Notes under the pieces: generated by a model
Database searches by the model: none
What the model was told of the DNA's origin: nothing
What the model saw: only the letters and a program-made list of their open reading frames with translations
Program-made: the position numbers and the translations under genes
Source: Ectothiorhodospiraceae bacterium WFHF3C12
GTDB lineage: Bacteria; Pseudomonadota; Gammaproteobacteria; Nitrococcales; Nitrococcaceae
Direction of reading: 5' to 3'
Length of the DNA: 64,000 nucleotides
Assembly: GCA_013519935.1 (NCBI GenBank)
Contig: JACDUA010000019.1
Location: 1 to 64,000, forward strand
Shown here: piece after piece, positions 29,226-61,339 of the stretch
Position numbering within the stretch: position 1 is the first letter of the stretch
How the letters are laid out: each line of letters starts with the position of its first letter

Positions 29226-29723
29226 TTAGCCACGGATGAACACAGATAAACACAAATGTGGATTCCGCTCCGCGGCAAACCGCAGCGTTGTGGGAGCGGC
29301 GACCTCGCCGCGATCGGGGCCGCCGAGAGCTGTCGCCGCGGGGACGCGCCTCCCACAGCCGAGTACCAGCCCCACGGTTTGTCGGGAAGTTGTGGGAGAG
29401 GCACCGCCGTCGCGATGCCGGCCGCCGAAAGGCGTCGCCGCGGGGACGCGCCTCCCACAGCCGAATTGCGGCGCCTCGGCGTATCGGGGTGATGTGGGAG
29501 AGGCACCGCCGTCGCGATGCCGGCCGCCGAAAGGCGTCGCCGCGGGGACGCGCCTCCCACAGCCGAGTACCAGCATCACGGCTTGTCGGGAAGTTGTGGG
29601 AGGGGCGACCTCGCCGCGATCGGGGCCGCCGAGAGCCGTCGCCGCGGGGACGCGCCTCCCACAGGCGTTCGACGGCATCTCCGGACACGAAATCAGCGTT
29701 CATCCGCGTTCATTAGCGGCTAA
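29226..29723. mobile_element. Compound repeat element 1 with terminal inverted repeats (between flgF and flgG)
   Basis: The left end starts TTAGCCACGGATGAACACAG and the right end is the inverted equivalent, ending GGCTAA at 29723; the two match over about 32 bases with several mismatches. The same ends bound elements at 32415-32621 and 59307-60043. Inside is a four-copy 102-bp array. No transposase, and no clear target duplication, is seen. It is best viewed as a MITE-like or REP-derived non-autonomous element. Confidence 0.65.
29289..29663. repeat. Four-unit tandem array, period exactly 102 bp
   Basis: Units of 69 bp at 29289-29357, 29391-29459, 29493-29561 and 29595-29663 begin TGTGGGAG and end CTCCCACA; spacers are 33 bp. 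Units 1 and 4 share one core (GCGACCTCGCCGCGATC) and units 2 and 3 another (CACCGCCGTCGCGATGCC). Spacers 1 and 3 are nearly identical. Each unit can fold as a long hairpin. Open frames through the array arise because the period is a multiple of three and are not considered genes. Confidence 0.85.
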
Positions 29724-32405: not shown

Positions 32406-32414
32406 CGGCTGGTT

Positions 32415-32621
32415 TTAGCCACAGATGAACACGGATAAACACAGATTCTGTACTGGCCCTGGAGCGACCCGTGGGAGGCGCGTCCCCGCGGCGATGGACC
32501 TTGGGAATCGTAGCCACGATGGGCTCGCCGCTCCGGCGCGGCGGCAGGGCGACGCAGGAGCGGCCCCTGACCTAGGAGCGTGCGTCGTTATCCGTGTGTA
32601 TCCGTGTTCATCTGTGGCTAA
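32415..32621. mobile_element. Compound repeat element 2 with terminal inverted repeats (between flgI and flgJ)
   Basis: The left end TTAGCCACAGATGAACACGG (from 32415) is repeated inverted at the right end, closing with GGCTAA at 32621. The 207-bp interior has one GTGGGAGGCGCGTCCCCGCGGCGATGG half-palindrome and other GC-rich inverted segments. It begins 9 bases after the flgI stop and ends 26 bases before flgJ. No promoter for flgJ is recognised in the remaining spacer. Confidence 0.7.
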
Positions 32622-32647
32622 CACGCAGTTGAACTGGACTTTTAACC

Positions 32648-33739
32648 ATGGCCACTGACCCGAGCCTGTACAACACCAGCTTCTCCAATGCCGGCCTGAC
32701 CCGGCTGAAGGCGGACGTGCAGCAGCCCTCGCGGGATAGCATCCGCGAGGTGGCCAAGCAGTTCGAGTCGCTGTTCGTCCAGACCATGCTCAAGTCCATG
32801 CGGGACGCCAGCTCGGCCATGGGCTCGGACCTGCTTAGCGGCGAGCAGACCAAGCAGTATCGGGCCCTGTTCGACCAGGAGATCGCCTCGCGGATCTCGC
32901 AGGGGCAGGGCATGGGCCTTGCGAGCGCCGTGGAGCGGCAGCTGCTGGAGAACGCGGGTCTCGGCGCCCGGGGCGATAACGCAACCGGCGGACGTTCGTT
33001 GAACGACTACCAGGCAAACGCCGTGCCCCATCGCCCGGTCGCTGAGTCGTCCCGGACGCCTGGGTCGGATGGACTCGCCATCCGGCAAGCCGGCCAGGCC
33101 GACCGCGCCGCCGTCCTGGCCCGCACCGGCAAAGCGGAGGCTCCCGAAACCCGGAGGTCGGATGCTCTCGGCATCCGACAACCCGGCGAAACGCAATCCG
33201 CCTCCTCGGTTCGCGGCGGCAAAGGCCCACTCTGGGATTCCCCCGAGGCCTTCGCCCGCGACGTCTGGCCCATGGCCGAGCGCGTGGGCCGCAAGCTGGA
33301 CGTGGCGCCCGAGGCCATTGTGGCCCAGGCCGCGCTGGAGACCGGTTGGGGGCAGCATGTCATCCGCGACGGGGCCGGTCAGAGCAGCCACAACCTCTTC
33401 AACATCAAGGCCCACGGCGGCTGGCGTGGGGACGCGGTTGAAGTGCCGACCATGGAATACGGCCCGGGCGGCGCGCGTCGCGAGGTTGCCGCCTTCCGGT
33501 CCTATCCGTCCCTGGAGGCGGCGTTCGATGACTACGCCCGGTTCCTGCAGGACAACCCGCGCTACCGCAACGCCCTGGAGGCCGGCGGCGACGGGGATGC
33601 CTTCGTGCGCGAGCTGCAGGAAGCCGGCTACGCCACCGATCCGCGCTATGCGGACAAGCTCCAGCGCATCATGCGCAGCGAACCGCTGACCACGGCCCAG
33701 GCCGGATTCAAGTTTAGCGGCGAACGGACGACAACCTGA
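32648..33739 (+). CDS. flgJ: Rod cap / peptidoglycan hydrolase FlgJ with REP-derived linker
   Basis: The 363-residue protein has the rod-binding domain at about 25-105 (VAKQFESLFVQTMLKSMRDASSAMGSDLLSGEQTKQYRALFDQEIASRI) and a glucosaminidase domain from about 200 to 350, with the catalytic Glu likely in AALETGWGQHVI. It caps the rod and opens a hole in the cell wall. The linker (about 110-200) contains two in-frame REP hairpins encoding SDGLAIR and SDALGIR. No good ribosome site precedes ATG 32648. Confidence 0.95.
   Translation: MATDPSLYNTSFSNAGLTRLKADVQQPSRDSIREVAKQFESLFVQTMLKSMRDASSAMGSDLLSGEQTKQYRALFDQEIASRISQGQGMGLASAVERQLLENAGLGARGDNATGGRSLNDYQANAVPHRPVAESSRTPGSDGLAIRQAGQADRAAVLARTGKAEAPETRRSDALGIRQPGETQSASSVRGGKGPLWDSPEAFARDVWPMAERVGRKLDVAPEAIVAQAALETGWGQHVIRDGAGQSSHNLFNIKAHGGWRGDAVEVPTMEYGPGGARREVAAFRSYPSLEAAFDDYARFLQDNPRYRNALEAGGDGDAFVRELQEAGYATDPRYADKLQRIMRSEPLTTAQAGFKFSGERTTT
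33064..33179. repeat. Two REP hairpins inside the flgJ coding region
   Basis: GTCGGATGG-ACTCG-CCATCCGGC (33064-33086) and GTCGGATGC-TCTCG-GCATCCGAC (33157-33179) are REP-type palindromes like those between genes elsewhere in the window. They lie 93 bp apart, a multiple of three, and keep the frame open. Confidence 0.8.
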
Positions 33740-43721: not shown

Positions 43722-44121
43722 GGAGGTCGGATGGCGAGCCCATCCGACCTCCGGAAGGACCACCACGTAGGTCGGCATCGCGCGCCAGCGCGACGCCGAC
43801 ATTCCGCCGTAGGTTGAAATGTCGGACGGCAAGCCCGTCCGACCTACGGCATATACCGCCTCCGTCATCATCGCCCCAACGGTCGTGCCGAGGATCCCGA
43901 CGAGGGCGGAAACGTCGGATGGTAAGCCCATCCGACCTTGTATGTTTTCGGGTTGAGGGTTCGCGCGGGCACGATGGAGCGGGAGCCCCGTAAGTCGGCA
44001 TCGCGCGCCAGCGCGACGCCGACGAAGCAGTCGATCATCGGCGCGAAATGTCGGACGGCAAGTCCGTCCGACCTACGGTATAGAAAGCGTAGGTCGGCAT
44101 CGCCCAAAGGGCGACGCCGAC
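43722..44121. repeat. Cluster of REP hairpins upstream (left) of the RAYT gene
   Basis: Elements at 43722-43752 (GGTCGGATGG palindrome), 43767-43847 (REP pair), 43914-43938 (GTCGGATGG/CCATCCGAC), 43990-44076 (REP pair) and 44089-44121 (single GTAG-headed hairpin). Heads are GTAGGTCGGC and tails CCGACCTAC; cores alternate between GTCGGACGGCAAG and GGCATCGCGCGCCAGCGCGACGCC types. No gene is seen in 43692-44164. Confidence 0.85.
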
Positions 44122-44164
44122 AACCCACGGGTCAGCGCTGACGCATACCATGAACCGGGGACCA

Positions 44165-44659
44165 TCACTCCCGCCCGACGGTTGCCGGCAAAGGCGGTTC
44201 GGATCGCCCCCAATCGGCCGGATAGACCCCCTCCGCCACAAACCGGTGAAAGCTCGAATACGGCCATTCTCCTGGCATCGCCGCCAACCCGTGCTTTACC
44301 GGGTTGTAATGGACGTAATCCACATGAGCGCGCCAATCCGCGTCATCGCGGATCAAGTGCTCCCAGAACCGCCCCTGCCAGATGTGGCCGGCACCGGCGC
44401 GCAGGGTGACGAATCGCTTGATTCGCCGCCACCGGGTGGAGAAGTCCGCGTCGTCCGCTGGCAGGGTCCAGATGCAGTGGAGATGGTCCGGCAGGAGCAC
44501 CACTGCATCCATCGAGAACGGTTGAGTTCGCCGTGTCGCCCGCAATGCCGCGCCAACTAGCGCCCGAACGCGCCCGTTTGTAAGCACGGGCCGTCGCTGG
44601 TGGGTAACCACCGTGAAGAAGTAGCGCGCTCCGGGCGTCCGTGCCCGCCGATATCGCAT
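44165..44659 (-). CDS. REP-associated tyrosine transposase (RAYT)
   Basis: The 164-residue enzyme is a Y1/HUH transposase of the RAYT group. The HUH motif is LPDHLHCIW (about residues 57-65), and the catalytic Tyr lies in VDYVHYNPVKHG (about 113-124). GHIWQGRFWEHLIRDD is a RAYT signature. These enzymes nick and join REP single strands and are single-copy domesticated relatives of IS200/IS605. REP hairpins with GTAG heads lie on both sides within 90 bases, as expected for its substrates. Confidence 0.93.
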   Translation of the reverse strand: MRYRRARTPGARYFFTVVTHQRRPVLTNGRVRALVGAALRATRRTQPFSMDAVVLLPDHLHCIWTLPADDADFSTRWRRIKRFVTLRAGAGHIWQGRFWEHLIRDDADWRAHVDYVHYNPVKHGLAAMPGEWPYSSFHRFVAEGVYPADWGRSEPPLPATVGRE

Positions 44660-44748
44660 GGCCGCTCCTCCATGAGCGTCGATTTATGCGAGGGTCGGTA
44701 GCGTAGCCAACGCCGCGTCGCGTCAGCAACGATGGGGGCACCGCCATT

Positions 44749-44873
44749 GTCGGACGGCAAGCCCATCCGACCTACGCCATATCCCGCGTAGGTCGGCATC
44801 GCCCGAAGGGCGACGCCGACGATGCCGTGGATCATCGGCGTGGAATGTCGGACGGCAAGTCCGTCCGACCTAC
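44749..44873. repeat. REP hairpins on the right side of the RAYT gene
   Basis: A single inverted REP (44749-44775, GTCGGACGGCAAGCCCATCC ending GACCTAC) and a REP pair (44788-44873) have the same heads and cores as those on the left. The remainder of 44660-45158 contains only the fleQ control sites. Confidence 0.85.
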
Positions 44874-55045: not shown

Positions 55046-55069
55046 AATCGCCGACCGGCCGAAACCGGC

Positions 55070-55508
55070 CGTGGGAGGCGCGCCCCCGCGGCGACGCTTC
55101 GGTCCGCCACTATCGCGACGAGGACGTCGCTCCCACAGCCCACCCGCGAGCCGAGGGCGTCGAAACCGGCCGTGGGAGGCGCGTCCCCGCGGCGACGGCT
55201 TCGAGACGCCAGCATCGCGACGAGGACGTCCCTCCCACAGCACACCGGCGAGCCGAGGCGGCCGAAACCGTTTGTGGGAGGCGCGTCCCCGCGGCGACGG
55301 GTTCGGACAGCCAGCATCGCGACGGCGACGTCGCTCCCACAGCACACCGGCGAGCCAAGGCGGCCGGAACCGGCAGTGGGAGGCGCGTCCCCGCGGCGAC
55401 GGCTTCGGGCCGCCAGCATCGCGACGAGGACGTCGCTCCCACAGCCCACCCGCGAGCCGAAGCGGCCGAAACCGGCGGTGGGAGGCGCGTCCTCGCGGCG
55501 ATATGCGC
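55070..55508. repeat. Five-unit tandem array after fliK, period 102 bp
   Basis: Units at 55070-55137, 55171-55239, 55273-55341, 55375-55443 and a partial one from 55477 begin GTGGGAGGCGCGTCCCCGCG and end CTCCCACA. The palindrome is 69 bp (68 in the first) and the spacer 33 bp, the same geometry as the flgF-flgG array although spacer sequences differ (GCCGAGGCGGCCGAAACC-type). No TTAGCCACAGATGAACAC-type terminal repeat flanks this array. The stretch 55509-55720 shows no gene. Confidence 0.85.
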
Positions 55509-59306: not shown

Positions 59307-60043
59307 TTGGCCGCAGATGAACGCCGATAAACGCGGATTTCTGGTCGAGAACGCCGCGGCGAGGTTAATCGCTGTGGCGCAGGCCGTTTTTCGGGGCACC
59401 GTTCAAGGCATCTATCGCGGCGGGGACGCCGCTCCCACGGGTCCGCGATGGCCCGCGAGTGCCCCTCTCCCCTCGTGGGAGAGCGGCCGGGGGAGAGGGG
59501 GTGCGGCGGCAGCCGCGATCGTGGGTCCATGGGCCTCCGGGGGGATCGCGCCTTGCGGTGCTCCTACAGGTGCTGGGGGTCGGCCGTTTTCGTCGGGGAC
59601 AGCCCGGTTCGCGGCCAGGGGCCGCTCCTACGGGGCGTCGAGCCGGCTTTGGGATACCCCTCTCCCCTTGTGGGAGAGGGGGCAGGGGAGAGGGGGTGCG
59701 GCGGCAGCCGCGATTCGGGTTGGATGGCGTTCCGACCCATTCGCGCCTTGCGGCGCTCCTACAGGTGCCGGGGTTCGGCCGTTTTCGTCGGGGATATACC
59801 GGTCCGCGGCCAGGGGCCGCTCCTACGGGGCAGCGGGTCGGCTCGTGGGGCCGTCGCCGCGGGGACGCGCCTCCCACAGGGCGGTTCGGCCCGTGGCGGG
59901 GCGGGCGCAGTTGTGGGAGCGGCGTCCCCGCCGCGATCATCGGCAGACCGCAAGCCTCAGCGCCGGGGCCGGTGTGGCCGAAGCGGAAGACGGCAAGACC
60001 CGGCGCACCGAATCCGTGTCCATCGGTGTTCATCTGTGGCTAA
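59307..60043. mobile_element. Compound repeat element 3 with terminal inverted repeats (between fliQ and fliR)
   Basis: The left end (TTGGCCGCAGATGAACGCCG) and the right end (inverted TTAGCCACAGATGAACACCG, ending 60043) match those of elements 1 and 2. The 737-bp interior holds a 195-bp tandem duplication and further GTGGGAG/CTCCCAC units. It begins 6 bases after the fliQ stop and ends 25 bases before fliR. No gene or transposase is seen in 59301-60068. Confidence 0.7.
59462..59851. repeat. Direct tandem duplication of 195 bp inside element 3
   Basis: Copy 1 begins at 59462 (CCCCTCTCCCCT) and copy 2 at 59657. Five markers (CCCCTCTCC, GTGCGGCGGCAGCCGCGAT, CTACAGGTGC, CGGCCGTTTTCGTCGGGGA and CCTACGGGG) recur at exactly 195 bp. 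Several marker sites have diverged, so the duplication is not very recent. Confidence 0.8.
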
Positions 60044-60068
60044 ACACAGCCGTCTTTGAGCGAGACCG

Positions 60069-60845
60069 ATGACCATCACCACCGCCGAGATCGCCGCCTG
60101 GGTGGGCAGCTTCATGTGGCCGTTCCTGCGAGTCGGGGCCATGCTCATGGCGGCGCCGATATTCGGCAACATGATGGTGCCGGTACGCGTGCGCGTGCTA
60201 TTCGGCGTCGCGCTGACCATCGCGGTTATGCCGGCCGTGGGTCCTGCCCCAGCCGTGGGGCCGTTGTCCCCCGAGGGCATGATGATCGCCTTTCAGCAGG
60301 TGCTCATCGGGGTGGCCATGGGGTTGCTCGTGAGCCTGGCCTTCCAGGCGGCGACCATCGCCGGCGAGAGCATCTCCATGACCATGGGCCTGGCCTTCGC
60401 CCAGATGGCCGATCCCCAGACCGGTGCCTCCGTGCCGGTGCTCAGTCAGTTCCTGCTCATCGTCATCACGCTGCTGTTTCTGGCCATGGGCGGGCATCTC
60501 ATGCTCATCGAGCTCACCGCCGAGAGCTTCCGCATGTTGCCCCTGGCACCGGAAGGGCTGGTCCGGCAGGACCTGTTCGACGTGATCTCCTGGGGCAGCC
60601 AGATGTTCGTCGGCGCGCTGCTCATTGCCTTGCCGGCCCTGGCCGTGCTGCTGACCACCAACATGATCATCGGCGTCATGACCCGCGCCGCGCCGCAGAT
60701 GAACATCTTCTCCGTGGGCTTTCCTATCACCATGCTGGTGGGCTACGTCACTGTGCTGACACTGGTGCTGCCGTCGCTTTCCGGGCGGATGTCAGATCTT
60801 TGGCGCGCCGCTTTCATGACCATCCGCCAGATCCTCGAAACCTAG
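60069..60845 (+). CDS. fliR: Flagellar export gate protein FliR
   Basis: The 258-residue membrane protein has about six hydrophobic helices and the FliR signatures FLRVGAMLMAAPIFGNMMVPVRVRVLFGVALTIAVMPAV and AGESISMTMGLAFAQMADPQTGASVPVLSQF. It is the third gate subunit. No promoter is recognised in the 25 bases after element 3, so transcription may come through the repeats from fliL. Confidence 0.96.
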   Translation: MTITTAEIAAWVGSFMWPFLRVGAMLMAAPIFGNMMVPVRVRVLFGVALTIAVMPAVGPAPAVGPLSPEGMMIAFQQVLIGVAMGLLVSLAFQAATIAGESISMTMGLAFAQMADPQTGASVPVLSQFLLIVITLLFLAMGGHLMLIELTAESFRMLPLAPEGLVRQDLFDVISWGSQMFVGALLIALPALAVLLTTNMIIGVMTRAAPQMNIFSVGFPITMLVGYVTVLTLVLPSLSGRMSDLWRAAFMTIRQILET

Positions 60846-60859
60846 CGTTCGCGGCGCGG

Positions 60860-61339
60860 TATTCGCGGCCAGGGGCCGCTCCTACGGGGCAGCGGGTTGG
60901 CTCCTGGGGCTGCCGTCCTGCGGCCTGGGTGGGTCGAAGCCGTCGCCGCGAGGACGCGCCTCCCACAGGCCCAGAGGCACCCCGAACCCTTGTAGAAGCG
61001 CCGCGAGGCGCTGGCCGACGGCTTCTCGAGCCCAATCGCGCCTCGCGGCGCTCCTCCGCGTGCCGGCGTTCCCGTGGGAGCGCCGACCCCGGCGCGAACC
61101 GGGTTCCGGCTGACGTGCCGCTATTCGCGGCGAGGTCGCCGCTCCCACGAGACCTTCTCCAGGAGGACGCGCCTCCCACAGGCGGTCATTGGCACGCGGA
61201 TACGCATGGACCTGTGGCAGCGGCGTCCCCGCCGCGAATGGCCTTCCCCCGCGCCCCAACCCCTCGCCCGCCAGGGGCGAGGCGCTTTCCGGAGCGCCAA
61301 GCCGTCGTAGGAGCGGCCCCTGGCCGCGAACCTTTTAGG
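60860..61339. repeat. Mosaic of REP-like palindromes between fliR and flhB
   Basis: GCGGCCAGGGGCCGCTCCTACGG (60868 region), GTCGCCGCGAGGACGCGCCTCCCACAGG, TAGAAGCGCCGCGAGGCG paired with CGCCTCGCGGCGCTCCTC, and GTGGGAGCGCCGACCCCGGCGCGAA are present. They belong to the same GTGGGAG/CTCCCAC and TAGGAGC/GCTCCTA families as the other arrays. The 32-bp terminal repeat of elements 1-3 is absent. No gene is seen. Confidence 0.75.

What the first reader, a model, noticed from the sequence alone, without database searches (positions are those of the whole stretch)
33064..33179. REP hairpins domesticated as the FlgJ interdomain linker
Two REP palindromes lie in frame in flgJ and encode SDGLAIR and SDALGIR between the rod-cap and glucosaminidase domains. 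Their spacing (93 bp) is a multiple of three. REP elements rarely lie in coding DNA. Linker extension could alter FlgJ reach or mRNA folding.
Basis: seen in the sequence. Interest (0 to 1): 0.7.

Follow-up and report, generated by a model that had tools for sequence, protein, structure and literature searches.

The report
Two REP hairpins inside flgJ linker
Two short mobile DNA hairpins of a kind normally confined to the gaps between genes lie in frame inside a flagellar-assembly gene, where they code for part of a floppy spacer between its two domains; this is a clean new example of a phenomenon already described in other bacteria, and nothing shows that the cell uses it.

Summary
Both palindromes (33064-33086, 33157-33179) lie in frame in an intact, single-copy flgJ and encode SDGLAIR and SDALGIR. 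They belong to this genome's own GTAG-type REP family: a model built only from intergenic copies scores them at E 3e-8 and 8e-8. Of 126 copies checked, 124 are intergenic; the two in flgJ are the only ones inside a gene. A REP-associated transposase (RAYT) flanked by the same REPs lies 11 kb away, and REPs are about 8-fold enriched in the window. The family was found in no other genome searched (58 relatives, 368 class genomes), and no relative's FlgJ linker holds the hairpin. The linker is hypervariable in length (50-133 aa) and modelled as disordered. Best reading: two lineage-specific REP insertions, from two sub-variants, tolerated because the site is permissive. 'Domesticated' is not supported: selection could not be tested, REPs supply only about 19 residues, and the shared frame is roughly a 1-in-6 coincidence. 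In-frame intragenic REPs, with neutrality in flexible linkers proposed, were described in 2013 (PMC3733652); Rickettsia palindromic elements are the older parallel. New member of a known kind.

The parts
32648..33739 (+). flgJ, dual-domain flagellar rod-cap / peptidoglycan hydrolase, 363 aa, single copy in the genome
32969..33223 (+). interdomain stretch (residues 108-192) modelled as disordered
   Evidence: pLDDT below 50; linker lengths in relatives
33060..33087 (+). REP copy 1: degenerate tetranucleotide CTGG + 9-bp stem/5-nt loop; encodes SDGLAIR (residues 140-146)
   Evidence: (39.3 bits, E 2.9e-8)
33153..33180 (+). REP copy 2, GGATGC..GCATCC sub-variant: degenerate tetranucleotide GGAG + 9-bp stem/5-nt loop; encodes SDALGIR (residues 171-177)
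   Evidence: (37.9 bits, E 7.9e-8)
44165..44659 (-). RAYT (REP-associated tyrosine transposase), the likely mobiliser of this REP family
   Evidence: NF047646, 174 bits, cut-off 80
43725..44076 (-). four intergenic REPs of the same family on one side of the RAYT (43725, 43820, 43913, 44049)
44748..44873 (-). two intergenic REPs of the same family on the other side of the RAYT (44748, 44846)

Best explanation
Two solitary units of this lineage's own GTAG-type REP family were inserted, probably by its RAYT transposase, into the part of flgJ that codes for the disordered linker between the rod-cap and glucosaminidase domains. The element has an open frame that reads (R)SDGLAIR, and the linker tolerates almost any in-frame sequence, so the insertions were kept as neutral or nearly neutral linker filler. 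Shown: REP identity, frame, intact domains, lineage specificity, absence from other genes, the nearby REPtron, a hypervariable linker modelled as disordered. Inferred: RAYT-mediated insertion, two separate events, neutrality.
For: Covariance model from 24 intergenic copies, flgJ copies excluded, finds both at E 3e-8 and 8e-8. 124 of 126 checked copies are intergenic and only these two are in a gene. Each flgJ copy is one base from a different intergenic variant but four bases from the other, which favours two sub-variants over one duplicated insertion. The REP pattern was found in 0 of 58 relatives and 0 of 368 other class genomes. No REP hairpin in the FlgJ linkers of 35 retrieved loci; linker length 50-133 aa, same family 50-71. 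Linker pLDDT below 50. The catalytic-domain motif ALETGWG is kept. RAYT flanked by this REP family 11 kb away; 14 REPs in the window against 1.75 expected. Published precedents and the same neutral-linker suggestion: PMC3733652.
Against: Both hairpin stems are still perfect and the GGATGC/GCATCC change in copy 2 is paired; that could reflect selection on the hairpin, but the same sub-variant exists in intergenic copies, so inheritance explains it. Two insertions in the same small target and in no other gene is a coincidence that neutrality explains only through a permissive site and a local REP hot spot. A single ~28-nt REP insertion would shift the frame, so a length adjustment must have occurred; no empty-site ortholog is held to show the junctions. 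The tetranucleotide GTAG is degraded in both copies.
Confidence: 0.78

Rival explanations
1. True domestication: the REP-encoded blocks are under selection, lengthening the linker so that the muramidase domain reaches peptidoglycan, or acting as coding-region mRNA hairpins that pause translation between the two domains.
For: Two copies in the same linker; both hairpins intact and strong as isolated RNA (-15.6 and -23.1 kcal/mol); linker longer than in the same family (98 against 50-71 aa).
Against: No selection test possible without close relatives; linkers of 80-133 aa occur elsewhere without REPs; the whole segment folds only slightly better than shuffles (z -1.56); disordered model.
Confidence: 0.08
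2. One REP insertion followed by a local 93-bp tandem duplication, rather than two insertions.
For: Same orientation and frame; similarity runs about 9 nt past the REP on the 3' side.
Against: The remaining ~60 nt of the two 93-nt units show no reported similarity. Each copy is closest to a different intergenic variant (1 difference) and 4 from the other. The 3' similarity partly matches the usual REP downstream sequence (copy 2 strongly, copy 1 weakly).
Confidence: 0.12
3. A REP doublet moved in as one ~120-bp block, as in the intergenic arrays with 93-98 bp spacing.
For: Spacing of 93 bp equals that between intergenic REPs at 43725-43940 (95, 93) and 44748-44846 (98); removing ~40 aa would bring the linker to 58 aa, inside the family range.
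Against: The DNA between the flgJ copies is not similar to any intergenic REP flank (best score not above shuffles), and the inverted partner hairpin of the usual REP pair is absent.
Confidence: 0.15
4. Not REP: convergence, chance, or an assembly or annotation artefact.
For: None beyond the general rarity of REPs in genes.
Against: Zero chance expectation, E-values of 1e-8 order, uninterrupted frame joining two conserved domains.
Confidence: 0.01

Closest known systems
Intragenic GTAG-type REPs (PMC3733652, 2013)
   Same: REP palindromes wholly inside ORFs of known proteins, sometimes two in one gene, adding in-frame residues; the paper proposes neutrality through location in flexible linkers or loops.
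   Different: That paper stresses DNA-repair and replication genes and its main text does not mention flgJ or flagella; here the only target is flgJ. Its supplementary list could not be read.
Rickettsia palindromic elements (RPE)
   Same: Short palindromic repeats inserted in frame in functional proteins.
   Different: The RPE-type repeats described in that paper carry a CGTC tag, lack a dedicated transposase and occur in many Rickettsia genes; here a GTAG-type family with a RAYT and one gene.
REPtron / REP + RAYT (TnpA-REP) systems (PMC8266576)
   Same: RAYT gene flanked by its cognate REPs, REPs concentrated near the transposase gene, inverted REP pairs in intergenic DNA.
   Different: The flgJ copies are solitary and have lost the GTAG tetranucleotide, so are probably no longer good RAYT substrates.

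Membership tests
GTAG-type REP family of this genome | Palindrome of the family's sequence and structure | tested here: met
   Model from 24 intergenic copies: 39.3 and 37.9 bits
GTAG-type REP family of this genome | GTAG tetranucleotide 5' of the palindrome, family level | tested here: met
   Consensus GTAGGTCGGATGGGCTTGCCATCCGACA
GTAG-type REP family of this genome | GTAG tetranucleotide in the two flgJ copies themselves | tested here: not met
   CTGG and GGAG; the same variants occur in some intergenic copies (43725, L068:5086). They are filed as decayed members by homology, not as active elements
GTAG-type REP family of this genome | Many copies, mostly extragenic | tested here: met
   About 126 copies, 124 intergenic
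REPtron | RAYT gene flanked by cognate REPs | tested here: met
   44165-44659 (-), NF047646 174 bits, six REPs around it
REPtron | RAYT cleaves this REP as single-stranded DNA | not testable with these tools
   Needs biochemistry
Intragenic REP (PMC3733652) | REP entirely inside an ORF coding a recognisable protein over 120 aa, frame kept | tested here: met
   flgJ 363 aa, both domains present
Rickettsia palindromic element | RPE sequence with CGTC tag | tested here: not met
   GTAG-type sequence, RAYT-associated
Domesticated (exapted) element | Purifying or positive selection on the inserted sequence | not testable with these tools
   No congeneric genome held; closest same-family FlgJ about 53% identical

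The most novel reading that the evidence does not exclude
Two different REP sub-variants were independently recruited into one linker because the encoded RSDxLxIR peptide or the coding-region hairpins help FlgJ, for instance by lengthening its reach or pausing translation between the rod-cap and muramidase domains: a case of real REP domestication in the flagellum.
Probability: 0.07. Interest if true: 0.55.

Novelty: new member of a known kind. Interest (0 to 1): 0.3.

Why it matters
It is a clean natural case in which an intergenic mobile palindrome became protein sequence: one genome, about 126 copies, a single gene hit, twice, in a disordered interdomain linker. It illustrates how RAYT/REP activity can feed new linker sequence and why such insertions survive only where structure is permissive. 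It does not change the picture of FlgJ or of REPs.

Tried and rejected
Looked for the inverted partner hairpin or REP-pair spacer between the two flgJ copies: no similarity above shuffles. Looked for REP-like hairpins in the FlgJ linkers of relatives, including the long ones: none with a 9-bp stem. Looked for the same REP family in relatives and across the class: none in the genomes searched. Looked for other REP-bearing genes in this genome: none among 126 copies. Looked for a congener to show the empty site: none held; one genome-contig scan gave only distant genera. First coordinates for the RAYT were out of frame, corrected. Plasmid collection search gave only distant FlgJ. Literature searches for FlgJ linker studies gave nothing on point.

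Full report
OBSERVATION. They are 33064-33086 (GTCGGATGGACTCGCCATCCGGC) and 33157-33179 (GTCGGATGCTCTCGGCATCCGAC), 93 bp apart, in the same orientation, each with a 9-bp stem and a 5-nt loop. They lie in the frame of flgJ (32648-33739, +, 363 aa) and encode SDGLAIR (residues 140-146) and SDALGIR (171-177). FlgJ is recognised by TIGR02541 at 274.6 bits, with the Rod-binding domain at 49-98 and the Glucosaminidase domain at 208-344, and it is the only match to itself in the genome.

ARE THEY REPs? Yes. Shuffled windows give no match to the pattern. The genome (4.6 Mb, 168 contigs) holds 60 exact matches to a relaxed pattern and none to its reversed control. The intergenic consensus is GTAGGTCGGATGGGCTTGCCATCCGACA, often followed after a short spacer by an inverted partner hairpin ending in CCGACCTAC, as expected of GTAG-type REP pairs. 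A covariance model built from 24 intergenic copies without the flgJ pair scores those two at 39.3 and 37.9 bits, E 2.9e-8 and 7.9e-8.

HOW UNUSUAL IS THE LOCATION? I fetched the DNA around 126 copies found by the model and predicted genes by codon usage: 124 copies are intergenic, none overlaps a gene edge, and two are inside a gene, both in flgJ. The fetched DNA is about 74% coding, so the depletion from genes is extreme. The gene finder is a simple one and strongly decayed REPs inside genes would be missed.

RELATIVES. Nearest held relatives are in the same family but other genera; records found by name are Alkalilimnicola, Nitrococcus and related taxa. Their FlgJ linkers are 50-98 aa in most cases (same family 50-71; 133 in Halomonas), against 98 aa here. 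None contains the REP hairpin, and the REP pattern was found in 0 of 58 relatives and 0 of 368 other class genomes. The blocks and the element are therefore specific to this lineage as far as the held data go. Because no congener is held, the empty site cannot be seen and selection cannot be measured.

MECHANISM. A RAYT gene (44165-44659, -, NF047646 at 174 bits) lies 11 kb from flgJ, flanked by six REPs of the same family. Of the five RAYT loci retrieved, it is the only one flanked by this family. The window carries 14 copies against 1.75 expected from the genome's density. Concentration of REPs near their transposase gene has been reported for Marinomonas (PMC8266576). The flgJ copies have CTGG and GGAG in place of GTAG; tetranucleotide changes reduced or abolished cleavage in the tested Stenotrophomonas system and GTAG is crucial in E. 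coli (same paper), so the copies are probably no longer active elements; this is inference. Each flgJ copy is one base from a different intergenic variant and four bases from the other flgJ copy, and the DNA between them resembles no REP flank. This favours two separate insertions over one duplicated or one composite insertion, without proving it.

WHY IT WAS TOLERATED. Residues 108-192 have pLDDT below 50 in an AlphaFold2 model from a shallow six-sequence alignment, whose overall confidence is low (mean pLDDT 57.8), while much of the glucosaminidase domain is at 70-90. The linker varies freely in length and sequence among relatives. Five of six frames of the REP consensus are open. A lone ~28-nt insertion would shift the frame, so only insertions with a length adjustment survive. 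Shared frame and orientation of the two copies has a prior chance of roughly one in six, so the 93-bp spacing is weak evidence for anything. Two REPs supply about 19 residues; they do not explain all of the extra length.

DOMESTICATION? No result here shows selection. The hairpins are strong in isolation (z -3.4 and -4.4), but the 150-nt region is only modestly more structured than shuffles (z -1.56), and perfect stems are what recently copied REPs have anyway. The paired G-C to C-G change in copy 2 is also present in an intergenic sub-variant, so it is not evidence for selection in flgJ.

WHAT IS KNOWN. [quoted passage not shown]). It also recalls the in-frame Rickettsia palindromic elements. 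Its main text does not mention flagella or flgJ; its supplementary list was not available. The present case is a new member of that known kind.

VERDICT. Observation confirmed; interpretation partly supported: REP-derived linker, yes; domestication, unproven and unlikely on present evidence.

Noticed in passing
44165-44659 (-), flanks 43725-44873: A complete REPtron: RAYT transposase gene with six cognate REPs around it, and REPs 8-fold enriched in the window.
   Followed up: yes
32412-32446 and 32590-32624: 35-nt inverted repeat (CACAGATGAACACGGATAAACACAGAT type) between flgI and flgJ enclosing a copy of another repeat (CCGTGGGAGGCGCGTCCCCGCGGCGATGG).
   Followed up: partly
29287-29664 and 55056-55501: Two arrays with 102-bp period made of a different palindromic repeat (TGTGGGAGGCGCGTCCCCGCGGCGA type) next to flagellar and other genes.
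   Followed up: no
59411-61240: Dense mosaic of several short repeat families, including a 195-bp tandem pair at 59462-59831.
   Followed up: no
genome G000, loci L110, L112, L113, L114: Four further RAYT genes over the family cut-off whose loci show no REPs of this family; they may serve other repeat families in the genome.
   Followed up: partly
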